Below are positions 1 through 12,259 of a stretch of 45,935 nucleotides of DNA, in pieces. This stretch comes from a virus. Both the position numbers and the translations under genes were made by a program. A model generated the notes under the pieces. That model ran no database searches, was not told where the DNA came from, and was given only the letters and a program-made list of their open reading frames with translations. How positions within the stretch are numbered: position 1 is the stretch's first letter; each line of letters opens with the position of its first letter. The stretch is taken from positions 1 through 45,935 of the IMG/VR virus record IMGVR_UViG_3300001920_000015; one strand, given 5' to 3'.

Positions 1-1344
1 TCATGCCACCGCCCCAGCCGTCGGGCGGGCCTCGGCGGCGAGCGTGCCGATCCCGCCGGGTCGGAGTCGCAGTTCCAGGTTCGTCGGCGTGACGATGACC
101 CCTTCGACCAGCAGCCGGACCAGACGCTGCTGCTCGGCCGGGAAGAGTTGCTCCCATACCCGGTCAACCTGCGTCATCGCGACCGTGACCTGCGCTTCGT
201 CCAGGGTCGGGTCAAGCGCCACCGCCTGCGGGATCATCGCCTCGATCATCTCGGGTGCCCGCAATACCCGCCGTAGTTGCGCGACCACCGCTTTCTCCAG
301 TTCCCCGGCCGGCAGGCGCGGCAGGCCCGAGGCGCCCGGCCCCTCGTGCATGTCGCGGGTGCTCAGGTAGTAGCGATAGGTGCGGCCGTTGGGCTTGGTC
401 GTGTGCCACGGCGACAGGGCGCGGCCATCCGGGCCGGTCAGCAGACCCTTCAGCAGGAACTCCACCTTGCCCCGGCGGGAGGCACCTGCCCGGAGCCGGC
501 CGTTGACCTGCAGGAGGGCGTGCGCCTCGTCCCACAGGACGCGCTCGATGATCGGCGCATGCGTGTTCTCGAAATACTGGTCGCGGTGCTTCATTTCGCC
601 GAGGTAGGTCCGGCAGTGCAGAATCTTGTGGACCGAACTCTTGTCGTGGAGCTGGCCCGCTAGCGTTCTGCCCGCTTTGGTCGTCCACGTCTTGTTGCAC
701 CAGCCGTGCGCGCGGATCTCCTGCACGACCTTCAGGATCGAACCCAGCGCGACGAAGCGGCGGAAGATCGTGCGGACCTGTTCCGCCTCGGCTTCGTTGA
801 TCGCCAATCGGCGATCGACAACGTCGTATCCCAGCGGCGGGATACCATGCATCCACAGCCCCTTCTTCTTGCTGGCGACGAACTTGTCGCGGATGCGCTC
901 GGCGGTCAATTCACGTTCGAACTGTGCGAAGGTCAACAGGATGTTCAGCAGCATCCGGCCCATCGCATCGGTGGTGTTGAACTGCTGGGTCACCGACACG
1001 AAGGTCACGCCGTGCCGGTCGAAGACCTTGACCAGTTCGGCGAAGTCGAACAGCGAGCGGCTCAGACGGTCGATCTTGTAGGCGACGACGATGTCGATCA
1101 GGCCCGCTTCGATGTCGGCGATCAACCTTTGCAGGGCAGGGCGCTCCAAGGTGCCGCCTGAAAAGCCGCCATCGTCGTAGTCGTTGGCGACCGGAATCCA
1201 GCCGTCGGCGCGGCGGCTGGCGATGCAGGCGGCGCCCGCGTCGCGCTGCGCATCGATGGAGGTGTACTCCTGATCCAGTCCTTCTTCCGTGGACTTGCGC
1301 GTGTAGACCGCGCAGCGGAGGCGCCTGGGTGCAATCGCGCTCAT
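1..1344 (-). CDS. Large serine recombinase (phage integrase-type)
   Basis: This 447-residue protein is a site-specific DNA recombinase that forms a covalent serine-DNA intermediate, and it is the probable integrase of the element. The N-terminal resolvase domain (about residues 8-155) has the YTRKS motif with the catalytic serine at residue 18, followed by YKIDRLSR and a GRMLLNILLTFAQFERE-type helix. The Recombinase domain follows (GIPPLGYDV onward, about 170-290), then a shorter C-terminal region. The ATG at 1344 is chosen because AAAGGAGG lies just upstream and because it overlaps the DUF2924 stop as ATGA, which implies translational coupling. The frame remains open upstream, but that stretch duplicates DUF2924 coding DNA. 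The stop codon falls on the first bases of the window, so the gene is complete. An integration role is inferred; no att sites were found. Confidence 0.9.
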   Translation of the reverse strand: MSAIAPRRLRCAVYTRKSTEEGLDQEYTSIDAQRDAGAACIASRRADGWIPVANDYDDGGFSGGTLERPALQRLIADIEAGLIDIVVAYKIDRLSRSLFDFAELVKVFDRHGVTFVSVTQQFNTTDAMGRMLLNILLTFAQFERELTAERIRDKFVASKKKGLWMHGIPPLGYDVVDRRLAINEAEAEQVRTIFRRFVALGSILKVVQEIRAHGWCNKTWTTKAGRTLAGQLHDKSSVHKILHCRTYLGEMKHRDQYFENTHAPIIERVLWDEAHALLQVNGRLRAGASRRGKVEFLLKGLLTGPDGRALSPWHTTKPNGRTYRYYLSTRDMHEGPGASGLPRLPAGELEKAVVAQLRRVLRAPEMIEAMIPQAVALDPTLDEAQVTVAMTQVDRVWEQLFPAEQQRLVRLLVEGVIVTPTNLELRLRPGGIGTLAAEARPTAGAVA

Positions 1345-1811
1345 CGGCGGCCTCCTTTGCGTAGGCCGAAGAACGCCGGCCCGGACCACTGCGTCCCCGT
1401 GATCTTGCGGGCGATCATTGACAGACTCCGGTAGCGGGAGCCCGCGTACTCGAACTCGCCGTCGGCGAGGACGTGGACGCGATGTTCGACACCAGCGTAG
1501 AGGCGCACCAGCTCGGTGCCGGCGACGGGCACCGCGCCGACCCGCTGTCGAGTCAGCGTGCCAGTCGCGACCAACTCGTCGATGCGGCGGTGGTTGCGTT
1601 CGAGCAGGTCCCGATCGGTCTTGGCAAACTCGACCTCCTGCCAGCGGTGCGCGATGCGCTTCTCGACGAAGCGGCGATTCGCGACGGGCGGCTTTGTGCC
1701 GAACAGTCGATGCCACTCATTCGAGAGGTCGCTCCAAGACCAGTCGGCCAGGCCCGCGATGCGTGCTGCCATCGAAGCGGTCGTTGCCGTAGGGGAGGGT
1801 GCTTGGGTCAT
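1341..1811 (-). CDS. DUF2924 domain protein
   Basis: This 156-residue protein matches the DUF2924 family, which is typically found next to large serine recombinases in phage-like elements. Visible signatures are LSNEWHRLFGTKPP near residue 30, the helix NRRFVEKRIAHRWQEVEF, and the C-terminal segment with GAVPVAGTELVRLY and a helix-turn-helix-like stretch ending in ITGTQWSGPAFFGLR. The molecular role is not established; an accessory role for the recombinase is inferred from the invariant pairing. It overlaps the small gene upstream and the recombinase downstream by four bases each (ATGA). Its ribosome binding site GGAG lies in the 3' arm of a hairpin (1818-1838), and a conserved promoter-like element (1841-1869) sits 29 nt upstream of the ATG. 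Confidence 0.85.
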   Translation of the reverse strand: MTQAPSPTATTASMAARIAGLADWSWSDLSNEWHRLFGTKPPVANRRFVEKRIAHRWQEVEFAKTDRDLLERNHRRIDELVATGTLTRQRVGAVPVAGTELVRLYAGVEHRVHVLADGEFEYAGSRYRSLSMIARKITGTQWSGPAFFGLRKGGRR

Positions 1812-2023
1812 GCCTGTGGACTCCGGTTGGTGGAGTCCGCATGGACGCGCTGTGCCGCGACAAAGCCAAGTCCAGAGCCGGCGGGAGCAGGCGCGGCGAC
1901 GGCAGTCGTGTGCGCGTCGCCGCCGCGCAGGCGGTGCAGGCCCAGGGCCAAGAGCGCGGCGGCCTCCGCGCGCCGCTGTGCCGGCGTCATGCGCGCCGGG
2001 TCGTGAAGGTTGGAGGGTATCAA
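1808..2023 (-). CDS. Small protein of the DUF2924-recombinase unit
   Basis: This 71-residue protein begins MIPSNLHDPARMTPAQRRAE and contains a short amphipathic helix (EAAALLALGLHRLRGG) followed by an alanine- and proline-rich tail. Small proteins with a MTPAQRR-type start are common first members of DUF2924-recombinase units, so I take it as a real gene; its function is unknown. An internal ATG at residue 12 is a possible alternative start. Its stop overlaps the DUF2924 start as ATGA. The 3' end of the gene carries the promoter-like element and hairpin that precede DUF2924, so the coding and regulatory signals overlap. Confidence 0.6.
   Translation of the reverse strand: MIPSNLHDPARMTPAQRRAEAAALLALGLHRLRGGDAHTTAVAAPAPAGSGLGFVAAQRVHADSTNRSPQA
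1818..1838 (-). promoter_or_regulatory. Hairpin enclosing the DUF2924 ribosome binding site
   Basis: A perfect 7-bp inverted repeat (GGACTCC / GGAGTCC, 7-nt loop) lies directly upstream of the DUF2924 start codon at 1811. In the mRNA sense the 3' arm contains GGAG, about 9 nt before the ATG, so the folded leader would hide the ribosome binding site. Each arm contains a GGA trinucleotide, the core of CsrA-type RNA sites. Regulation by RNA structure or a CsrA-like protein is inferred. Confidence 0.5.
1841..1869 (-). promoter_or_regulatory. Conserved bipartite promoter-like element, copy 1 (before DUF2924-recombinase)
   Basis: On the minus strand this reads TTGGCT, 17 bp, GTCCAT, with ACAGCGC abutting the second box. 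It shares this architecture with five other copies in the window. Its downstream end lies 29 nt before the DUF2924 ATG. It sits inside the 3' end of the small upstream gene, so it would drive DUF2924 and the recombinase separately. Confidence 0.6.
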
Positions 2024-2149
2024 GGGGGTTCCGCTGGAGTGTCAAACCAGCGGGAAGTGTCCCAAGCCGATCCCGCTGTTGTATCGCAGCCTGGCGTAGG
2101 CTGCGCAACCCGGACGGGGTCGACCGTCGAACGACCATGGTTGAATCAG

Positions 2150-3034
2150 ATGATATTTGCCTTGCTGTGCATGCTTCTTGCCACTTGGATCGCTCGTATC
2201 ATCCGTCGCCCATCTTCCGCGCAGCGATCCAAAGCTCGCAGGCATGCCAAACGTGAAGCGCAATCGGTATCGACGCAAGCCAGCGACATGCGTCACCATC
2301 GTGCAAAACCAGCCGCGGTTCGCGAAGTGCTGTTCACAATAGCGCTCGAAGCTCCCGACGCCAGTTGCCGCATGATCGCGGATCGGTTCAACCGCGATCA
2401 CGTCGAACAGGGATGGTCGGTCGGTAAGACCTACGTGTCGGAGTTCCTGCGCGATTTCAGACAATGGCGGGCATCGCCCAAGCGCCACCTGCATTCCATC
2501 GATACCGCCGGCGCGGTCAATCAGGTCTGGGCCATCGATCTCACCGAGCATCGGATCGAACCACGGACGCGACAACCATTGCTCGGAATTCTCGACCACG
2601 GCAGTCGGCGCATGCTGACGTTGGACGCCCTGCGCGAGCGTACATCGATCGCCATCCTGCGACTGTTGCTGGATGCCATCGAACACTACGGCAAGCCGAA
2701 GGCGATTCGCACCGACAACGAAGCCATGTTCACCTCCTAGGTCTTCGCCTTCGCGCTGCAGTGGCTGGGCATCCGCCACCAGCGGACGTTACCTCACTGC
2801 ACCTGGATGAATGGCCGCATCGAGCGGGGCTGGTCCACGTTCAAGCAAGTGCTCCGAGTCTGCAATATCCCAAGAGAAGCGGAGCTGCAGGCAACGTTGA
2901 ACTTCCTGCGCAGCGTCTACAACCAAGAGCGGCCGCATCAGTCGCTGAGCGGGCACACGCCCGACGAAGCGTGGCGCATCCTCATCGAGCGGAAGCGCAA
3001 GGCCAAGCGGCGCGACCGCCCCCGGCGACGATAG
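2150..3034 (+). pseudogene. DDE (integrase-core) transposase broken by an amber codon
   Basis: The frame from the ATG at 2150 encodes an integrase-core transposase of the stand-alone IS3/IS481-like type. It has a short hydrophobic N-terminus, a helix-turn-helix-like region (CRMIADRFNRDH ... VGKTYVSEFLRDF), the first catalytic Asp in VWAIDLTEHR and the second in RTDNEAMFTS. A TAG codon then occurs in frame at 2738-2740. The same frame continues with the usual motifs LGIRHQRTLPH, CTWMNGRIERGWSTFKQ (third catalytic Glu) and YNQERPHQSL to a stop at 3034. A single TGG-to-TAG change would explain it. The truncated product lacks the third catalytic residue, so the gene is probably dead unless the amber is suppressed. 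No convincing terminal inverted repeats were identified. Confidence 0.8.
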
Positions 3035-3286: not shown

Positions 3287-3658
3287 TTAAGCTCCTCTGT
3301 AAATGGCTAGTAGCTTGTAGCTGCCTTTTTCAATGTATAAGCACACGTCTCCTCCGAGCACAGGCTGTTTAGGCCGCATGCAAACTTCATCGTAATCCTT
3401 ATTTTCAAGCAAGCGGCGAAATCTGATTGCGTAATCATCCTTCCTGCTTGAGTCAAAAACTGAAGTCTTGCCATTTCCGAAACTAGCTATTGAATCAACT
3501 CTCAGAGAATCTATTTCGATACCTTCTTCTTCAGCGTAACATTTTGCAGAAATTGCTGAATCCTGATGGTGGCTTAAATTCAAACAAGAATTCTTGCTGC
3601 AACCGAGCAGGCAAAGTGCAGCCATGGGCAGCATGAGAATTAACTTGCAGTTTGACAT
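3287..3658 (-). CDS. Small lipoprotein, second of a paralogous pair (putative immunity)
   Basis: This 123-residue protein has a lipoprotein signal peptide (MSNCKLILMLPMAALCLLGC, lipobox LLGC with Cys20). The mature part has two sites matching the neighbour at 3765-4130: a CYAEEEGIEID-type motif after the lipobox region, and a C-terminal VCLYIEKGSYKLLAI strand pattern matching ICIYIDKKDRKLILI. It therefore looks like a diverged duplicate. It lies downstream of the Rhs toxin gene and first lipoprotein on the same strand. Base composition is visibly AT-richer than the phage genes, as is common for exchanged toxin-tip and immunity cassettes. The immunity role is inferred from position only; no characterised family is recognised. 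Confidence 0.65.
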   Translation of the reverse strand: MSNCKLILMLPMAALCLLGCSKNSCLNLSHHQDSAISAKCYAEEEGIEIDSLRVDSIASFGNGKTSVFDSSRKDDYAIRFRRLLENKDYDEVCMRPKQPVLGGDVCLYIEKGSYKLLAIYRGA

Positions 3659-3764
3659 GATCTTTACTCCATTTTTTTGACGGCATCACCGCGAACAATG
3701 CACTCAGAGAAAAGAGACAGTCACGCCAAGGGGGGTGGGCATGGCAAGAATTTGATAAACGCGC

Positions 3765-4130
3765 TCAAACACCAAAATTAATTAATATTAACTTCCTGTC
3801 TTTTTTGTCTATATATATGCAGATTCTATCCGCAGCGCCCGTCTGGGCATGGTCATAGCAAACCTCGAAATACCTTCTTCCCTGTAACGGGGATAATGCG
3901 TCCTTGGAATATTCATCATTCTTCAGATTGGCCGACGTAATTTCTCCGTTCATCATGGACTTTATCTGCCCGGGCTCAAAGGCGGACAAGTCGATATCAC
4001 TTTCATGTGCATAGCAATTGGCAGCCCCTAAAACATCATCGATCTTTTCACAATTTGCATTGCGATCGCATGATGCACTGAGTATTGTGGCCAAAGAAAT
4101 AAAAATTATTTTATATTTTTGACATTTCAT
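3765..4130 (-). CDS. Small lipoprotein coupled to the Rhs toxin (putative immunity)
   Basis: This 121-residue protein has a signal peptide ending in a lipobox-like ILSASC, so it is probably lipid-anchored facing the periplasm. Two further Cys residues (NCYAHESDID and FEVCYDH) recur at matching places in the paralogue downstream. Its ATG overlaps the Rhs stop as ATGA, with GGAG in the 3' end of the Rhs coding region, so translation is coupled to the toxin. Direct coupling to a polymorphic toxin's C-terminus is the usual position of a cognate immunity gene, and the membrane anchor suggests protection at the envelope. The family is not recognised, and the function is inferred from context. Confidence 0.7.
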   Translation of the reverse strand: MKCQKYKIIFISLATILSASCDRNANCEKIDDVLGAANCYAHESDIDLSAFEPGQIKSMMNGEITSANLKNDEYSKDALSPLQGRRYFEVCYDHAQTGAADRICIYIDKKDRKLILINFGV

Positions 4131-7100
4131 AGCAGGGCTCCTGGGCTGTACTGCTGCCCTCTAATTTTCCATAGGTAGTTTCGCAAGTCACCATTCGGTG
4201 TACCGAGATAAACATTAACTTTTTCAGCATCTCCGTACCCCTTATCGTCCTTAGAAAAATGCTCTGAATCGTACCCGAACCAAGCATCTGGAAGGTACCA
4301 TTCTGGCCGAGAAGAATTTGGATGGGTATGCCAAGCAGCCCATCTTTTCGCGCAAGACGGGCAGTTTCCAGAGCCACCGAAGACATCGCCTATTTTCGGA
4401 TCGCATCTATCAATTATTCCGACAACAGGCCCCGTCCAAAAAAACTTCTTGTTCTCATCCTGACAGATATTCCCACAAAATTCGATATTTCTTCTCATGC
4501 TCACCGGGCGCATTTTCTTTAAAATATTGATCGCAGCGTCTCTTGAGTTGTCGAAGCGCGGAGCCCCTGGCGCACATTTGCTCCCACATTCCGAAAGGAG
4601 GCCAAATCTATCCCTCCTGTTGAGCCCATTGGCAGCGGAGTATAAGTATGTGCTTACTCCGCCAAATAAACCAACGGGGTCGCTCTGAGTGTAGCGGCCA
4701 ACATCTGCGTCGTAGTCCCTATAATAATTTTGAATAAATCCACTAGAAGAGTCATTCCTTTGCCCAGGGAAACGCATATCCAATACAAACTGCTCTCCGT
4801 TGTCATCAGGATCCTGATTCGGCACGCCATTTCCGAAAGCCTCGTCCATCAGCTCCCAATGCCAGACAGCCCTGCTGGTCACCGGGTCGAGCGCAACACG
4901 CGGCGTTTCCAGCATATCCGTTTGGAGATAGTAGAGTTTTTGGCTCGCTCCACTGCCCACCAATATGCCAACCGGCATATTGCCAAGCCAGATGGCTTGC
5001 TGCGTGGGATTCCCAGTGACACTATCGTAGTCTCCAATCCAACGACCAGACTCGTCGTAGACAGTGACGATACGCTTAGTACTGTTGAATTTGAGCACCT
5101 GCTCGCCGTTGCCGTTGTATCGATATTGCATCGAGGTCGTGCCGTTGTGCCTGACCTCCGACATGCGATTGGCGGCGTTGTAACTGAAGTCGCGCACGAT
5201 TCCGGCTGAGACGGCTTTGCCTGTGATGCCACTGCCCCATGCGGGGCGTGCGACCATTTTTGACGGCGGGGGTGCCGACCCGGATGGCACGGCACTGGGC
5301 GTGCTGGCGCCCTGCTCAGGCTGACGCCACTGCCAGAATGCACGGGAGCGCTCCTGTCTCTCTTCGCGCCGCGCACGCAAGTCCCGCAGACGCGCGCGCA
5401 TGCCAGCACGGGCGGTGCCCGGCGGCTGCCATTGGGCGTAGGGATCGGCACCGGCTTGGGTGTCGACGCGCGGGGGCACGCGCGTACTCGCGTTGCGCAT
5501 ATCACCCGCCAGCTGTCGGAGTTCAGCCTGCCCATCACTTGGGGACTGCCTCCACAGCGGAGACGTTGGCCTTGCTGATGCCTGCCGCTGCAATGCAGTC
5601 TGCGCCACACCGCCGATGCGGGTCGTATTGCCCACAGCGTCGTAGCTGCGGTTCTGGGAGCCCACAGCGGTCAATCGATGGCTGGTTCCAGCGTATGCAT
5701 AGGCCGTGGTCGTGCTGCCTTCGGTCTTGCTCATCCGGTTGCCCGTGGCGTCGTAGGCGTAGCCTTGCAGGAGCAGACCGTTCCCGCCCTCACGCACGGC
5801 GGTGAGCCGGTCGAGGCCGTCGTAATCGTAGGTCCGCATCGGCGGATCGGCTTGGTCGCCTTTTCGTAGCGCCGTCAGATTCCCTGCTGCATCGAACTGG
5901 TAGCCCACGCTCAGACTGCTCGGATTGGGGACAAGATTGTTGCCCACCTCGGTACCGGTCTGGATGATGCCGGGGCGGTGGTTGCGGTCGACCGTGCGCC
6001 GGTGAACGAGGCCGTTGCCGTAGGTCCACCCGGCGATAGTGCCAAAGGGGTGATAGCGCGCCTGGGTGAGCAGTCGTTGCTTGCGGCCATCGGCCATGAT
6101 CACATCGATTTGGAACACTCGGCCTTCGCGATCCTGACTCACTCGCACCTCAGCGCCGTCCGGGTAGCGCCAGCCATAGAACCGGCCACGGCCGGGGCGC
6201 GGAATGATGCGATAGTCCTGGCCCTGCGGCACGGGCGGCGGAGTCCACAGATAGCGCAGAGCATATGCGCGGTTGTCGGTGCGCTGTAGCTTCTGGGTGA
6301 GTTGGCCGTAGCGGTCGTAGCACCAGGTGGTACTGCCGCTGGCATCGGTCATCCGCGCCAGACGGCCGGTGAGGTAGCGCTCGCCCGCGGCGCAGTCGCT
6401 TTGGGCCGTATCGTAGATGAAGCCGACGCTTTGAGTCGGATCGCTCGGATAATCGATGGTGGTTGGGCGGTTCAGGGCGTCATAGGCGACCTGGGTCGTG
6501 ACGCCGCGGGCATCGGTGCTGGTGACCTGATTGCCGGCTGCGTCGTAGCCGTACGTGGTGACGCCGGTATCGGGGCTGTCCAGCCGCGTACGCTCGCCGA
6601 ACGCATTGTAGGCATAGTCGGTGTACAGGTTCTTGGGGTCGGTCACGCGGGTGAGGCGGTCCAACGTATCGTAGGAGTACAGGATCTGTGCGCGGTCGCT
6701 GGCGCCTGCTGGAGCGGTGGCGTTGCCGATGCTGGCAGTCATGCGGCCCAACGGGTCGTAGGCCGAGCCGTTGGCGCGCAGCAGCGGATCGGTGCTGCCC
6801 ACCTGGTTGCCCTCGGCGTCGTAAGCGAACACGGTTGCGGCATTGTTCGCGTCGACGATGCGTGCCAGACGCCCCAACGTGTCGAACTCCCGCGACAGTT
6901 CACGGGTCAGATTGCCAGTGGCGTCGAAGGTATGCTCGGCGATGCGCTCGCCGGCCGCATTCAGGGTGTAGACGATGGCGTTGCCGTCGCTGTCCGCGAC
7001 GGTGGTAAGGCGCTGACCGTCGTCGTAGCCGAACAAGACGATGCTGCGGTCGGGCTTGACCAGCTTGCGCACCAGGCCCTCGGCGGTGTACTCGGTGCGG

Positions 7101-9526
7101 GTGATGACATCGTCGAAGTCCCAGAAATCGTCTGCGCCCAGCGTGATGCGCGCAGTCAGCCACCCGCGAGCGTCGTACTCGAAGTTGCTGACGATGCCGT
7201 GCGGGTCCTTCAGCGACTTGACCCGCCCGGCGCCATCGTAGGTCAGCACTTCCGTGGTCTGACCCAGCGCGTTCGCGATCTTCCAGAGGTCGCCCTTTCG
7301 GTAGGCGCACGCTGTCGGCGCCGCAGCACAGTCCGGATGGTCGCTCTGGCGATAGATGATGCTGGTCGTATCGGCCACGTCGCTGCGTGGGCCATCGACG
7401 GACTTCACAAGGCCGACGAATGGACAGCTGCCGGCGGTCACATCGGCCTGCTCGCAATACAGGGTAGTGGTGGTACGAGTGGCGCCGGCCGCAGGGTCAT
7501 GGATGGTGACCGTGGTCGATTGGCCGCGCGCGTTGTACGCATAAACGCTACGTGCGACTAGGACACTCCCGGCATCCTTCGTGCGCATCTCCAGCACGCG
7601 CTGAGTCACAGGATCGCGGTCGACCTCCAGTCGCCGCTGCTGCGGGGTTCCGACTGCTTCGATGGTGGCACTTCGGTGGCCTGCGGTGTATTCGTACTGC
7701 GTGATCACACCGCGCTTGTCGGTGCTCTGCACGATACGACCGGTGGCGTCATACTGCTGCGACAGACTGCTCCCCGCCTCGCTGATACCCGTGATGCGCC
7801 GGTACAACCCGGACTGGAAGGTATAGGTGCGCTGCAGACCGTTGGGCGTAGTCACGGCCCCCTGTGTATCGCTGTCGAAGGAGACGGTGGTGACCTCATT
7901 GGGGCTCCCCAGGACCCGGCTTTCCACGGCACGCCCCTGCGCGTCGTAGCGGAAGCTGGCGTAGCGAATCCCGCTCTCCGCAGTGATCCCGGTCAGATGG
8001 TGTCGTTGACTGGCATCGCCGATCAAGCCGGACTCGGCGTAGTGGTACTGCTTGATACGGCCAAGGCCATAGTCCACCGAGACCAGATTGTCGTTGTTGT
8101 CGTAGCCGTACTTCACCTCGCTGCCGTCCGGCTTGACGATCCGAGAGAGCAATCCGTTCTGGCCGTATTCGAAGCGCAGCTGCCGGCCCTGGGCGTCGGT
8201 GGCCGTCGCCAGCCAACCAACCGCCGCCAGAACGCCCTGCGTTGCGCTCTGGGCATTGATATAGGTGAAGCTCATGTCGCGCAGCGGATCGTCCGGGCGG
8301 CGAAGGGCGATCAGTCGGCCGGCGGCGTCGAATTCGCGGATCTCCCCGTCCGGCTCGCGCAGCCGCAGAAACAGGGGAAAGGCGTTGTTGACCTGTTCGA
8401 GAATGCGATCGGGGGAGTTCTCGGCACGATAACGGCCATTGCCGATCGCCACGAAGGTCTCGTAGTAGCCGGATGCGCTCACCAGAGTCGGCAGGCCAGA
8501 GGTCGGGCCGTCGATGCGTTCAAGAAAGCTGTGGGTCCAGCCAGGGGCCATCCCTTGACCAGCGCTGAGCTGGTTCAACGAGTGATAGGTGCGCGTGAAG
8601 CTGCGGCCGGCAAACTCGAAATCGGTCTCGAACCGTGCCTTGTTGCCGGTGGCTGGGTAGCAGGGGTTTCCGTTGGCCGGACAGCTGGCCACCTGTAGCA
8701 TCGGGCCGTCGATGTAGCGCTTGCGTGTATTGCGGCAGAGGTTGGGCAGCTGGATGTCGTCCTTGCCATCGCCATAGCCGCTGTTGGAGCTGTCGTTCCG
8801 CCCGATGGAGTCGGCAGGGCAGGAGAAACTGGCCCGCTTGCGCAATACGAACTGCAACACGGTGTTGGTGGAGGGGCCACCGTTGTTGCCCGGGCAGGTC
8901 ATCGTGGTCTCGTAGACCTTTCGCCCGTAACCGACTTCGCCATGACGACCATTGGTCGCGGTCGTGAAGCCACTCACGAAATCGTAGACGGGCTCCCAGT
9001 CGTTCAGCGCGGACGCGTTGCTGAAAGAGCACTCCGGGCGCCAGCCCCGGTATCCGCCCATCATCGAGCCGACGATCCCGTCCTCATCCGCGCACCAGCC
9101 AGGAAAGTAGCTGTCGGACGTCACGGCGCATGGCGGCAGGCTGCCTTGCCAGCCATCGCGTTGAGCGATGAGGTAGCTTGGGGAATACAGTGGCTCGGCA
9201 GGGTGGTCGGGAATCGAGTAGAGGAATTGCCGCCTGCCATACACGGATGAAGTCAGCAACGCCTCGCCACGCCGCCACTGCACAACACGCCCCGTCGCCA
9301 GCGGTTCGGCGCGTAGCACGGCTTCCGCCTTAGCCTGGGAGTCATAACACTGCTGACCACCGGCCGGGTAACAGAACTGGGGTGGGGTCGGCGCACTCTG
9401 GGCCTGTGGAGCCGACTGCGGGAGCATGCTCGCACCAGCGAGCAGCGTGACCCATGCCAGAGCACTCACCCACACCTTGCGACCAATCGGCCATCTCCCG
9501 TCAATCTGCATTCTTCCACTCGCCAT
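4127..9526 (-). CDS. Secreted Rhs/YD-repeat polymorphic toxin with JAMM-like tip
   Basis: This protein of about 1,799 residues begins with a signal peptide (RKVWVSALAWVTLLAGASM, then an Ala/Gln/Pro-rich stretch). A DUF6531-like region follows (ATGNKARFETDFEFAGRSF), then dozens of YD/Rhs repeats (YDAAGNQVTSTD, YDALNRPTTIDY and similar). A low-complexity Arg/Gln/Pro linker precedes the Rhs core ending YYRDYDADVGRYTQSDPVGL ... DRFGL. The last 156 residues or so (4127-4597) form the variable tip. It has AWHTHP, FSKDD and VYLGTPNGDLRNY, resembling DUF4329 and the JAMM pattern HxHP...SxxD, so a metallopeptidase-like activity is plausible but unproven. The ATG at 9526 is favoured by AGGGGTGAG just upstream; in-frame ATGs at 9577 and 9556 are alternatives. 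The tip is AT-richer than the repeats, consistent with exchange. Confidence 0.88.
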   Translation of the reverse strand: MASGRMQIDGRWPIGRKVWVSALAWVTLLAGASMLPQSAPQAQSAPTPPQFCYPAGGQQCYDSQAKAEAVLRAEPLATGRVVQWRRGEALLTSSVYGRRQFLYSIPDHPAEPLYSPSYLIAQRDGWQGSLPPCAVTSDSYFPGWCADEDGIVGSMMGGYRGWRPECSFSNASALNDWEPVYDFVSGFTTATNGRHGEVGYGRKVYETTMTCPGNNGGPSTNTVLQFVLRKRASFSCPADSIGRNDSSNSGYGDGKDDIQLPNLCRNTRKRYIDGPMLQVASCPANGNPCYPATGNKARFETDFEFAGRSFTRTYHSLNQLSAGQGMAPGWTHSFLERIDGPTSGLPTLVSASGYYETFVAIGNGRYRAENSPDRILEQVNNAFPLFLRLREPDGEIREFDAAGRLIALRRPDDPLRDMSFTYINAQSATQGVLAAVGWLATATDAQGRQLRFEYGQNGLLSRIVKPDGSEVKYGYDNNDNLVSVDYGLGRIKQYHYAESGLIGDASQRHHLTGITAESGIRYASFRYDAQGRAVESRVLGSPNEVTTVSFDSDTQGAVTTPNGLQRTYTFQSGLYRRITGISEAGSSLSQQYDATGRIVQSTDKRGVITQYEYTAGHRSATIEAVGTPQQRRLEVDRDPVTQRVLEMRTKDAGSVLVARSVYAYNARGQSTTVTIHDPAAGATRTTTTLYCEQADVTAGSCPFVGLVKSVDGPRSDVADTTSIIYRQSDHPDCAAAPTACAYRKGDLWKIANALGQTTEVLTYDGAGRVKSLKDPHGIVSNFEYDARGWLTARITLGADDFWDFDDVITRTEYTAEGLVRKLVKPDRSIVLFGYDDGQRLTTVADSDGNAIVYTLNAAGERIAEHTFDATGNLTRELSREFDTLGRLARIVDANNAATVFAYDAEGNQVGSTDPLLRANGSAYDPLGRMTASIGNATAPAGASDRAQILYSYDTLDRLTRVTDPKNLYTDYAYNAFGERTRLDSPDTGVTTYGYDAAGNQVTSTDARGVTTQVAYDALNRPTTIDYPSDPTQSVGFIYDTAQSDCAAGERYLTGRLARMTDASGSTTWCYDRYGQLTQKLQRTDNRAYALRYLWTPPPVPQGQDYRIIPRPGRGRFYGWRYPDGAEVRVSQDREGRVFQIDVIMADGRKQRLLTQARYHPFGTIAGWTYGNGLVHRRTVDRNHRPGIIQTGTEVGNNLVPNPSSLSVGYQFDAAGNLTALRKGDQADPPMRTYDYDGLDRLTAVREGGNGLLLQGYAYDATGNRMSKTEGSTTTAYAYAGTSHRLTAVGSQNRSYDAVGNTTRIGGVAQTALQRQASARPTSPLWRQSPSDGQAELRQLAGDMRNASTRVPPRVDTQAGADPYAQWQPPGTARAGMRARLRDLRARREERQERSRAFWQWRQPEQGASTPSAVPSGSAPPPSKMVARPAWGSGITGKAVSAGIVRDFSYNAANRMSEVRHNGTTSMQYRYNGNGEQVLKFNSTKRIVTVYDESGRWIGDYDSVTGNPTQQAIWLGNMPVGILVGSGASQKLYYLQTDMLETPRVALDPVTSRAVWHWELMDEAFGNGVPNQDPDDNGEQFVLDMRFPGQRNDSSSGFIQNYYRDYDADVGRYTQSDPVGLFGGVSTYLYSAANGLNRRDRFGLLSECGSKCAPGAPRFDNSRDAAINILKKMRPVSMRRNIEFCGNICQDENKKFFWTGPVVGIIDRCDPKIGDVFGGSGNCPSCAKRWAAWHTHPNSSRPEWYLPDAWFGYDSEHFSKDDKGYGDAEKVNVYLGTPNGDLRNYLWKIRGQQYSPGALL

Positions 9527-9740
9527 CGTCTCACCCCTGTTCTTTTTCACGTCCATACCACACTCCAGACTTGTCATGCTAGCTCATCCGGGTCTCGTCT
9601 CATGCGATCCGAGGCCGTTTCCACATGTGTCAAGAAAACCCGTACATCAGCAGCCCCAGCAGCACCCGGCAGACCGTAACGACGCGGTCTTGCCAGCCCA
9701 GCTGCGGCGTACCTCGGCGCGCGATGGATCGTTTGCACAA

Positions 9741-10148: not shown

Positions 10149-10648
10149 GCAACCCCCGATACCCTGGGCCGACGCCTCACGCCCGACAGGCGGGGCGAGC
10201 GACGGATGCCCATGCTCTGTGGCGCATCGATGCAGACCCAGGCGGCGCGCAGCGCGTGGGCAGGCTCTGATGGAGATCGCGCGTCACGCAGGCACAGACG
10301 CACTGGGCCGATGTCGGCGAAGTCGCCATCGCCCAGCACCAGCACATGCGCGTTCCAGCCGAAGTCGCAGGGCGCGCTGGCGCGATAGCCGTTCGCGACC
10401 TCCAGGCACTGTTCCCAGGTGGCTTCCACGAACAGGTGCCAGCGCTGTTGCCAGTGGCTGGTGAGGTGCAGGCGGATGTGTTCGCCAATGGCGAGCGACT
10501 CGCCGGGCGACAGTGGCAGCTCGGGCATGCGAATCTCGCGTGTGGGGGTGCCGGCTTCCGCCGCCGGGGACGAATCGGGGGAAAGCCACGACAGCGGCGG
10601 AAGCAGGCTTAGCAGGAAGGAATGAAGAACAGGCGCGGCCAGGCTCAT
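10136..10648 (-). CDS. Divergent tandem CsrA-like protein, operon gene 3
   Basis: This 170-residue protein has an extra N-terminal hydrophobic and Pro/Ser-rich extension (LHSFLLSLLPPLSWL) before two CsrA-like units. Unit one reads LPLSPGESLAIGEHIRLHL then WHLFVEATWEQCLEV. Unit two reads HVLVLGDGDFADIGPVRL then AWVCIDAPQSMGIRRS. The first unit has lost the MLxLTRR strand, so taken alone it would hardly be recognised. Assignment rests on the shared layout with its neighbours (IGEHI, CIDAP, Arg near the end). The start at 10648 overlaps the previous stop as ATGA. The extension could be a signal anchor or a mis-assigned start, since an internal ATG before PELPLSPG is possible. Confidence 0.55.
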   Translation of the reverse strand: MSLAAPVLHSFLLSLLPPLSWLSPDSSPAAEAGTPTREIRMPELPLSPGESLAIGEHIRLHLTSHWQQRWHLFVEATWEQCLEVANGYRASAPCDFGWNAHVLVLGDGDFADIGPVRLCLRDARSPSEPAHALRAAWVCIDAPQSMGIRRSPRLSGVRRRPRVSGVACWS

Positions 10649-11088
10649 GCGGCCGACTCCCATGCGAGACGGTCCACGTCGGCGCATTCGGTTTCGGCGC
10701 CATCTTGCGGAACGGATTCGACGGGCCGGGAAGCCCGGATGCGCGCCAGCACTTCCTCGCGATGCACTGCGACATCAAGCGGAGCGCCCACGCCGAAGCG
10801 CACGGCGCGCTCGCGGTAGCGGCGGGCGCCGGGGCCGGTGTCGAACCAGACCCGCACCAGCGCATCGCCAACGCGGAAGGGGTCGCCGCTCAGCAGCGGG
10901 ATGAGGCTCATCCCCCCGCCCTGCGGCAGCCGCGCGTGGCGCAGCGGGCGGTCATCCCACTCCACCGGCAGCTCCAGCGGCGCCAGTACGGCGACCACGG
11001 CGTGGAAGCGGGTCTTGTCGCGCAGGCGGATGCGGACGTGTTCACCGATATGGATGGCTTGGCCGATCCTGCGGGTAAGTACCAGCAT
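10645..11088 (-). CDS. Tandem (double) CsrA-like protein, operon gene 2
   Basis: This 147-residue protein is the clearest of the set. Unit one is MLVLTRRIGQAIHIGEHV ... HAVVAVLAPLELPVEW, aligning over a full CsrA. Unit two is MSLIPLLSGDPFRVGDALV ... VRFGVGAPLDVAVHREEV, ending with an essentially canonical CsrA C-terminal strand and helix (VAVHREEVLARI). The canonical first strand is thus in unit one and the canonical last strand in unit two, the pair that forms one RNA-binding face in the CsrA dimer. An acidic tail follows. The ATG at 11088 lies 7 nt after the previous stop. Expected action is binding GGA-containing leaders of phage or host mRNAs. Confidence 0.8.
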   Translation of the reverse strand: MLVLTRRIGQAIHIGEHVRIRLRDKTRFHAVVAVLAPLELPVEWDDRPLRHARLPQGGGMSLIPLLSGDPFRVGDALVRVWFDTGPGARRYRERAVRFGVGAPLDVAVHREEVLARIRASRPVESVPQDGAETECADVDRLAWESAA

Positions 11089-11095
11089 GGCCGCC

Positions 11096-11482
11096 TCAGC
11101 CCTGCGCGCGCTTGCGCGCCATGGCATGGGCGCCGCGGTGAGCGCCGGAATCGCGGGTGACCGCACACCCCGGGGGTGCGTCGATATGCAACAGGCGGTC
11201 GCGCAGCGGGGTGGCGCCGAGGTCGGGCAGCCGATAGTCCTCCAGACGCACCGACACTCCGCCGATGTCGAAGTGCTCACCCGAGCATAGGGACAGGATG
11301 TGCGATGTGCGTTTGCTGTCGGCGGGGGCACTGCGGGCCGGGTGAGCCAAAGCTCCCAGAGCCGCCCCGTTCGGCGCAGTCACCAGCAGCAACGTCAGGT
11401 CGTCCAGACGGCTGGTGACGAAAATCCGGATGTTCCGGCCCACCCAGATCACATCCTTGGGGCCGCATTCGACGGTCTGCAC
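11096..11482 (-). CDS. Divergent tandem CsrA-like protein, operon gene 1
   Basis: This 128-residue protein starts with GTG, preceded by AGGGAG. The first unit (VECGPKDVIWVGRNIRIFV ... LTLLLVTAPNGAAL) keeps the IxVGxxI and APxG pattern but not the MLxLTRR strand. The second unit (ILSLCSGEHFDIGGVSVRL ... RLLHIDAPPGCAVTRDS) parallels the second units of the three following genes, with Arg in the VHREE position. It is the first gene after the divergent promoter region, so it heads the operon. Without its neighbours I would call it hypothetical, and the CsrA relationship is inferred from the shared pattern. Confidence 0.55.
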   Translation of the reverse strand: MQTVECGPKDVIWVGRNIRIFVTSRLDDLTLLLVTAPNGAALGALAHPARSAPADSKRTSHILSLCSGEHFDIGGVSVRLEDYRLPDLGATPLRDRLLHIDAPPGCAVTRDSGAHRGAHAMARKRAQG

Positions 11483-11608: not shown

Positions 11609-12259
11609 ATGGACAAGTACGCCCGCAACCTCAAAGAAGCGATGGAGTCATCCGCCGTCCGCACCTCCGTCTTGGCGCGCAAGGTGGGCGTCATCGATGC
11701 CTATGTTTCGCAATGGCGAAGCGGGAAGCGACCTGTGCCGGTCGAACGCGCACCAAAGGTCGGCGAAGTCCTGAACGTTCCTCCGGAGAGGATCAGCGAG
11801 GCCTATGACCGGCTGCTGAGGTCAGGCTGCATCGAACGGGATGGTGTATCGGCGGGCTCCGTGCCGAAAGGCCATATCGCCCTCGACCGACTGCAGGGGT
11901 TCGACTACGGCGATGGCCCCTCCTTCCTCCTGATGCCGGAATTCCTGATCCGACAGAAGATCGGGCTGACACCGATCGAAGAGGTACGCTGGACACTCCA
12001 ACCGACTGACGCGATGTCCCCGCAGATTCAGCGCGACGAGATGGTGCTGGTCGATGTCCGGGTCGCAAGTCAGGGCCGGGTGGTGGACGGCGCGCTACAC
12101 GCCTTCACGCTCTACGATCGCCCCCATATCAGGAGAATCCTGGCTCGCGGGGACAACTGGGAACTTTGCGGGTACGATGACGAAAGAGACCGCATCCTGG
12201 TCCCGCAGGCGGATCTGCCGAAGCTGGAGATTCGTGGGCTGGTGGTCGCGTGGCTCTGA
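11609..12259 (+). CDS. Phage repressor, HTH plus inactive S24-like domain
   Basis: This 216-residue protein has an N-terminal helix-turn-helix (residues 1-65; VLARKVGVIDAYVSQWRSGK is the recognition region) and a C-terminal LexA/CI-like S24 fold (about 120-216). It probably represses the divergent CsrA-like operon and maintains lysogeny. In S24 proteins the catalytic serine lies in a G-[DN]-S-M motif and the lysine in a VKRL-type strand. Here the matching segments read PTDAMSPQIQRDEMVLVDV and PHIRRIL, so Ser is replaced by Ala and Lys by Arg. RecA-stimulated self-cleavage is therefore not expected, and induction would need an antirepressor or other signal. No strong ribosome binding site precedes the ATG. 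Confidence 0.82.
   Translation: MDKYARNLKEAMESSAVRTSVLARKVGVIDAYVSQWRSGKRPVPVERAPKVGEVLNVPPERISEAYDRLLRSGCIERDGVSAGSVPKGHIALDRLQGFDYGDGPSFLLMPEFLIRQKIGLTPIEEVRWTLQPTDAMSPQIQRDEMVLVDVRVASQGRVVDGALHAFTLYDRPHIRRILARGDNWELCGYDDERDRILVPQADLPKLEIRGLVVAWL

What the first reader, a model, noticed from the sequence alone, without database searches (positions are those of the whole stretch)
4127..4597. Rhs toxin tip with JAMM-like HxHP...SxxD pattern
Seen: the last 156 or so residues have AWHTHP and FSKDD followed by VYLGTPNGDLRNY, resembling DUF4329 and the metal site of JAMM/MPN+ peptidases; base composition shifts to AT-rich at the Rhs core end. Inference: a peptidase-like, possibly deconjugating, effector exchanged as a cassette.
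Basis: partly seen in the sequence, partly recalled or inferred. Interest (0 to 1): 0.6.

Follow-up and report, generated by a model that had tools for sequence, protein, structure and literature searches.

The report
Rhs toxin tip with exported immunity
A bacterial Rhs toxin lying beside phage genes ends in a predicted zinc-peptidase (JAMM-like) domain that family databases already know but that published work labels a nuclease or RNase; its protector proteins, and those of nearly all relatives examined, carry export signals, so it probably attacks the cell envelope rather than DNA or RNA.

Summary
The last ~155 residues of a 1,816-aa Rhs protein (window 4127-9577, minus) match Pfam DUF4329 (E=9e-21), which is Tox-JAB-2 of Zhang et al. 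2012 (PMC3482391). All JAMM/MPN+ ligand positions are present (E1699, H1750-T-H1752, S1775-x-x-D1778); E and both H are invariant in 25 relatives. Profile comparisons align the family with JAMM proteins, but AlphaFold2 gave no usable model, so the fold is unproven here. The domain is known; the new point is where it acts. Published sources predict a nuclease or RNase. In 30 of 31 DUF4329 toxin loci the adjacent downstream gene carries a Sec or lipoprotein signal, against 0 of 11 nuclease-tipped loci and 9% of background ORFs. Sec-exported Rhs proteins with nuclease tips have non-exported partners, while E. coli RhsD-YbbC and RhsB-YhhH have exported ones. All 14 stand-alone alphaproteobacterial DUF4329 proteins are exported too. 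I conclude: a Rhs-delivered JAMM-type metallopeptidase acting in the envelope, neutralised by two paralogous lipoproteins. A published Salmonella DUF4329 pair, listed without a signal peptide on its immunity protein, is the main counter-example. Deconjugation of ubiquitin-like targets is unsupported.

The parts
4127..9526 (-). Rhs polymorphic toxin; probable start MASGRMQ at 9526 (an upstream in-frame ATG is at 9577, from which residues are numbered here); N-terminal Sec signal, YD/RHS repeats, RHS core, C-terminal toxin tip
   Evidence: RHS_repeat E=2.8e-64, Rhs_assc_core E=8e-13; Sec call
4598..4681 (-). DPVG-x19-DRFGL, resembling the paired-Asp self-cleavage motif at the end of Rhs cores; predicted release point of the tip just downstream
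   Evidence: positions; role from general knowledge of Rhs proteins
4127..4597 (-). toxin tip: DUF4329 / Tox-JAB-2 domain, predicted JAMM-type metal site E1699, H1750, H1752, S1775, D1778
3765..4130 (-). immunity candidate 1: 121-aa predicted lipoprotein (Cys right after the signal, SASC), start overlaps the toxin stop by 4 bases (ATGA)
3287..3658 (-). immunity candidate 2: 123-aa paralogous lipoprotein (lipobox LLGC), probably left from an earlier cassette
   Evidence: (paralogue E=6e-14)
3287..5132 (-). AT-rich exchange block (GC 0.46 against 0.65 in the Rhs core): last ~150 aa of the core, tip, both immunity genes

Best explanation
The locus is a Rhs toxin-immunity cassette whose tip is a DUF4329/Tox-JAB-2 domain, a divergent JAMM-type zinc metallopeptidase. 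The Rhs protein leaves the producer through Sec; its tip is probably cut free at the end of the Rhs core and enters the periplasm of a neighbouring cell, where it hydrolyses an amide bond in an envelope substrate (an envelope protein or a peptide bond of the cell wall). The lipoprotein encoded directly downstream binds the tip in the periplasm of the producer and its kin. Shown here by computation: domain, metal-ligand conservation, export signals on toxin and immunity, and the link of exported immunity to this tip type rather than to the delivery protein. Inferred: metal binding, catalysis, substrate, release of the tip, and neutralisation.
For: Domain match E=9e-21. E, H, H, T, P, G invariant and S, D at 90% or more in 25 diverse relatives. 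Independent profile routes lead to JAMM: hmmsearch of the PDB with the family puts Sst2/AMSH, STAM-binding protein, JAMM1 and Mov34/PAD-1 chains among the weak top hits (E 0.03-2), Sst2 aligned with E and HTH in register, and hhalign against Prok-JAB scores 27.7 (P=4e-4) with E, HxH and S..D in register against a best of 16.1 in 100 column shuffles. Exported partner in 30/31 DUF4329 toxin loci versus 0/11 nuclease-tip loci, Fisher p=2.8e-9; background ORFs 8.9%. Delivery confound broken both ways: Sec-exported Rhs proteins with AHH and HNH-EHHH nuclease tips (L157, L160) have non-exported partners, while E. coli RhsD-YbbC (lipobox LFAC) and RhsB-YhhH have exported ones. All 14 stand-alone alphaproteobacterial DUF4329 proteins carry export signals. 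Six invariant Cys in the window's clade fit an oxidising compartment. Both window lipoproteins are homologous to the partners of the nearest tips. Precedent: VgrG2b, a periplasmic metallopeptidase toxin whose immunity protein needs its signal peptide (PMC6899460).
Against: No usable structure: AF2 pLDDT 34 and 45, no Foldseek match. JAMM profile matches are individually weak (PDB E>=0.03, equalled by an unrelated DUF1071 protein; hhalign probability 34%). A Salmonella table lists the immunity protein of RhsA-DUF4329 with no signal peptide and a CdiI domain (PMC10469887). Export calls use a simple rule, not SignalP; loci within the set are partly related, so the p-value overstates independence; the control set is small. 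The stand-alone proteins may have a non-toxic role. Cysteines could bind structural zinc instead of forming disulphides.
Confidence: 0.62

Rival explanations
1. The tip is a nuclease/RNase acting in the cytoplasm, as Zhang 2012 suggested for Tox-JAB and as later papers annotate DUF4329; the lipoproteins merely catch the toxin in transit or are unrelated neighbours.
For: Zhang 2012 argues from missing ubiquitin-tail residues and the RadC analogy; EHEC and Salmonella papers label DUF4329 an RNase; the Salmonella partner has no signal peptide.
Against: Exported partner in 30/31 DUF4329 loci against 0/11 nuclease-tip loci, including nuclease tips on the same kind of Sec-exported Rhs; the partner is homologous to those of related tips and overlaps the toxin stop; stand-alone members are exported. 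I found no experiment behind the RNase label in the held library; its cited source (Ma 2017) could not be read.
Confidence: 0.17
2. The tip is a JAMM isopeptidase that removes ubiquitin-like modifiers in the target cell.
For: JAMM signature and best JAMM matches in the PDB are AMSH-type deubiquitinases; an I-TASSER model of E. coli RhsB's tip matched a proteasome-lid chain (PMC7216683).
Against: Such targets are cytoplasmic, while immunity is exported; Zhang 2012 reports that the tunnel residues are not conserved and most host bacteria lack such modifiers.
Confidence: 0.06
3. The tip acts in the envelope but not as an enzyme, for example as a membrane-disrupting or binding domain with a degenerate JAMM fold.
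For: Exported immunity fits any envelope target; no activity has been tested.
Against: All ligand positions are retained at 90-100% over a highly diverged family, which is hard to explain without metal chemistry.
Confidence: 0.12

Closest known systems
Pfam PF14220 DUF4329 = Tox-JAB-2 (Zhang et al. 2012, PMC3482391)
   Same: profile match far over the cut-off, E / H[ST]H / S / D signature, C-terminal tip of a Rhs protein, downstream immunity gene
   Different: published prediction is nuclease, with Imm-NTF2-2 in E. coli only; here immunity is a Cys-bearing lipoprotein family with no Pfam or NCBIfam match and localisation points to the envelope
E. coli RhsD-YbbC and RhsB-YhhH
   Same: DUF4329 tip followed by an exported small protein
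   Different: YbbC is Imm-NTF2-2 (E=4e-26); the window's lipoproteins do not match that family; tip identity about 29-30%
Tox-JAB-1 with lipoprotein immunity Imm65 (Zhang 2012)
   Same: Rhs-linked JAB tip with a lipoprotein immunity protein
   Different: separate JAB clade, Bacteroidetes only; not compared by sequence here
VgrG2b C-terminal domain with PA0261 (PMC6899460)
   Same: works like it: metallopeptidase toxin of the periplasm, neutralised by a signal-peptide-bearing immunity protein
   Different: HEXXH zincin carried on a T6SS spike; the window tip has no HEXXH
AMSH/Sst2, JAMM1, Prok-JAB (JAMM/MPN+ peptidases)
   Same: ligand motif order and register
   Different: remote; ubiquitin-tail residues reported absent in toxin JABs

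Membership tests
DUF4329 / Tox-JAB-2 | profile score over curated cut-off (28.6 bits) | tested here: met
   74.4 bits
DUF4329 / Tox-JAB-2 | E, H[ST]H, S, D signature | tested here: met
   E1699, H1750-T-H1752, S1775, D1778
JAMM/MPN+ superfamily | Glu plus HxH plus SxxD metal site in order | tested here: met
JAMM/MPN+ superfamily | MPN fold with clustered metal site | tested here: inconclusive
   AF2 pLDDT 34/45, Foldseek no match
JAMM/MPN+ superfamily | zinc-dependent peptide or isopeptide hydrolysis | not testable with these tools
   needs purified protein
ubiquitin-like deconjugase | residues lining the tunnel for the modifier's tail | not tested
   reported absent in toxin JABs by Zhang 2012; not checked on this sequence
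cytoplasmic nuclease/RNase toxin | non-exported immunity, as in AHH, EndoU, GH-E, WHH and EHHH tips | tested here: not met
Rhs polymorphic toxin | YD repeats, RHS core, variable tip, adjacent immunity gene | tested here: met
VgrG2b-type zincin | HEXXH motif | tested here: not met
   absent from the tip sequence
Imm-NTF2-2 (immunity) | PF15631 match | tested here: not met
   no hit for either window lipoprotein; YbbC does hit

The most novel reading that the evidence does not exclude
Tox-JAB-2 tips are envelope-acting JAMM peptidases that cut an isopeptide-type bond in the periplasm, such as a peptidoglycan cross-link or a lipoprotein-peptidoglycan link: a use of the JAMM fold outside ubiquitin-like biology. 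It would include RhsB, found with YhhH in about half of complete E. coli genomes.
Probability: 0.2. Interest if true: 0.8.

Novelty: new member of a known kind. Interest (0 to 1): 0.5.

Why it matters
DUF4329 tips occur in E. coli RhsB/RhsD, Salmonella and Xanthomonadaceae toxins and are carried in papers as nucleases or RNases without an experiment that I could find. The export pattern of their immunity proteins is a simple, testable reason to move the family to envelope-acting metallopeptidases. An RhsB-YhhH segment like the one used here is in at least 2,681 of 5,426 complete E. coli genomes, so the test can be done in laboratory strains.

Tried and rejected
Viral-contig searches with the tip and two-to-three sub-family alignments found no relatives; searches with an E. 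coli tip and a phage DUF4329 protein gave three loci, which with the window made a 3-row alignment; AF2 on it still failed. Search of phage genomes: none. AHH in Lysobacteraceae: most hits are internal to large proteins, not tips, and were left out of the control; most GH-E hits there have about 170-500 further residues after the domain and were also left out. Considered and rejected: that immunity is exported merely because the toxin is. The first survey had strands wrong and was redone. The neighbours in L029, L031 and L034 are doubtful immunity genes; without them the count is 27 of 28.

Full report
Observation. The finding is correct. The minus-strand ORF 4127-9577 (1,816 aa; likely start at 9526, giving a Sec signal) is a Rhs protein. 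Its last ~155 residues match Pfam DUF4329 at E=9e-21. The motifs lie where stated. The AT-rich block begins at 5132, inside the Rhs core, and extends through the tip and two lipoprotein genes to ~3287; GC returns to 0.655 beyond. This is what cassette exchange by recombination within the core would leave.

What it is. DUF4329 is the Tox-JAB-2 domain of Zhang et al. 2012 (PMC3482391), whose signature is E, H[ST]H, S, D. I gathered relatives with the family profile: 31 of 395 genomes of the Lysobacteraceae-type family and 15 of 398 genomes of the phylum had a match. In a 25-member alignment the invariant columns are S21, E27, H78, H80, T121, P122 and G124 of the aligned tip, with S103 and D106 at 90% or more: the complete JAMM ligand set plus a family-specific T-P-x-G. 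The nearest relatives (L006, L028, L023) are 37-39% identical and share six invariant cysteines.

Is it JAMM? Two profile tests say yes, weakly but in register. An hmmsearch against PDB sequences puts AMSH-like Sst2, STAM-binding protein, AMSH-like protease, JAMM1 and a Mov34/PAD-1 protein among the 29 hits, at E 0.03-2 and alongside unrelated proteins. An hhalign comparison with six Prok-JAB proteins from the surveyed genomes scores 27.7, P=4e-4, aligning E, HxH and S..D, against at most 16.1 in 100 column shuffles. A published I-TASSER model of E. coli RhsB's tip matched a proteasome-lid chain (PMC7216683). My own structure test failed for lack of permitted alignment depth, so the fold remains inferred.

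Where does it act? The literature predicts a nuclease or annotates an RNase. Immunity proteins usually sit where their toxin acts; for VgrG2b the immunity protein fails without its signal peptide (PMC6899460). With one simple rule applied to all loci, an adjacent same-strand downstream ORF carries a Sec or lipoprotein signal in 30 of 31 DUF4329 toxin loci and in 0 of 11 loci with AHH, EndoU, GH-E, WHH or HNH-EHHH nuclease tips (Fisher p=2.8e-9). The single miss, L025, has a visible hydrophobic leader and a homologue (L027) that is called. The rate in 835 background ORFs is 8.9%. The loci are not fully independent, so the p-value is nominal.

Confound. Six of six DUF4329-tipped Rhs proteins whose start I fetched have Sec or lipoprotein signals, so exported immunity might only reflect exported toxin. 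It does not: Rhs proteins with Sec signals but AHH (L157) or HNH-EHHH (L160) tips have non-exported partners, and L160's N-terminus is of the window's type. Conversely E. coli RhsD and RhsB, to my knowledge without Sec-dependent N-termini, are followed by YbbC (lipobox) and YhhH (Sec signal). Several non-Rhs DUF4329 proteins (L008, L012-L015, L019, L020) also have exported partners, mostly with no visible signal of their own. In addition, 14 of 14 stand-alone alphaproteobacterial DUF4329 proteins are exported. The location follows the tip, not the carrier.

Immunity genes. imm1 starts inside the toxin stop (ATGA overlap), with the same offset as in L006, L023 and L028. imm1 and imm2 are paralogues (E=6e-14) and both resemble the partners of the nearest tips. 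They match no Pfam or NCBIfam family. In genome G140 the order is Rhs with tip A, immunity A, orphan tip B with an in-frame stop, immunity B: a direct view of how a second immunity gene can be left behind, and the likely origin of imm2.

Mechanism. Most likely: Sec export, release of the tip at the end of the Rhs core (DPVG-x19-DRFGL), entry into a neighbour's periplasm, metal-dependent hydrolysis of an envelope substrate, neutralisation by the lipoproteins. Substrate, release and catalysis are inference. A ubiquitin-like substrate is unlikely.

Against. A Salmonella study lists the RhsA-DUF4329 partner with no signal peptide and a CdiI domain (PMC10469887). Either that sub-family has a cytoplasmic target, or another toxin lies at the tip; I did not fetch it. 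The library did not include Ma et al. 2017, cited as the source of the RNase label.

Verdict. Known domain, new member, with a well-supported change in its likely site of action.

Noticed in passing
window 1-3034 and 11609-45935: The window is a virus record: serine integrase (1-1716), repressor (11609-12259), tail tape measure, major capsid protein E, portal/S49, terminase and DNA methyltransferases. The Rhs cassette and an rve-type transposase lie between integrase and phage genes, so the toxin may be prophage cargo or flanking host DNA.
   Followed up: partly
window 1799-3034 (+): An rve-domain (IS3-like) transposase split by an in-frame stop near 2740 lies directly beyond the lipoprotein genes.
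   Followed up: no
window 10645-11331 (-): ORF with two matching CsrA stretches in one protein, a possible tandem CsrA next to phage genes.
   Followed up: no
L155 (G140:C3), about 7540-8010 of its reverse complement: Orphan DUF4329 tip with an in-frame stop, followed by its own lipoprotein immunity gene, behind an intact Rhs-tip-immunity set.
   Followed up: yes
L036-L047, L050, L051: Stand-alone exported DUF4329 proteins in alphaproteobacteria without an obvious immunity gene; possibly a non-toxic envelope function of the domain.
   Followed up: partly
L145, L146 (about 5001-5453): Short phage-encoded DUF4329-like protein with HNH and SxxD, followed in its cellular copy L030 by an apparent phage structural gene.
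   Followed up: no
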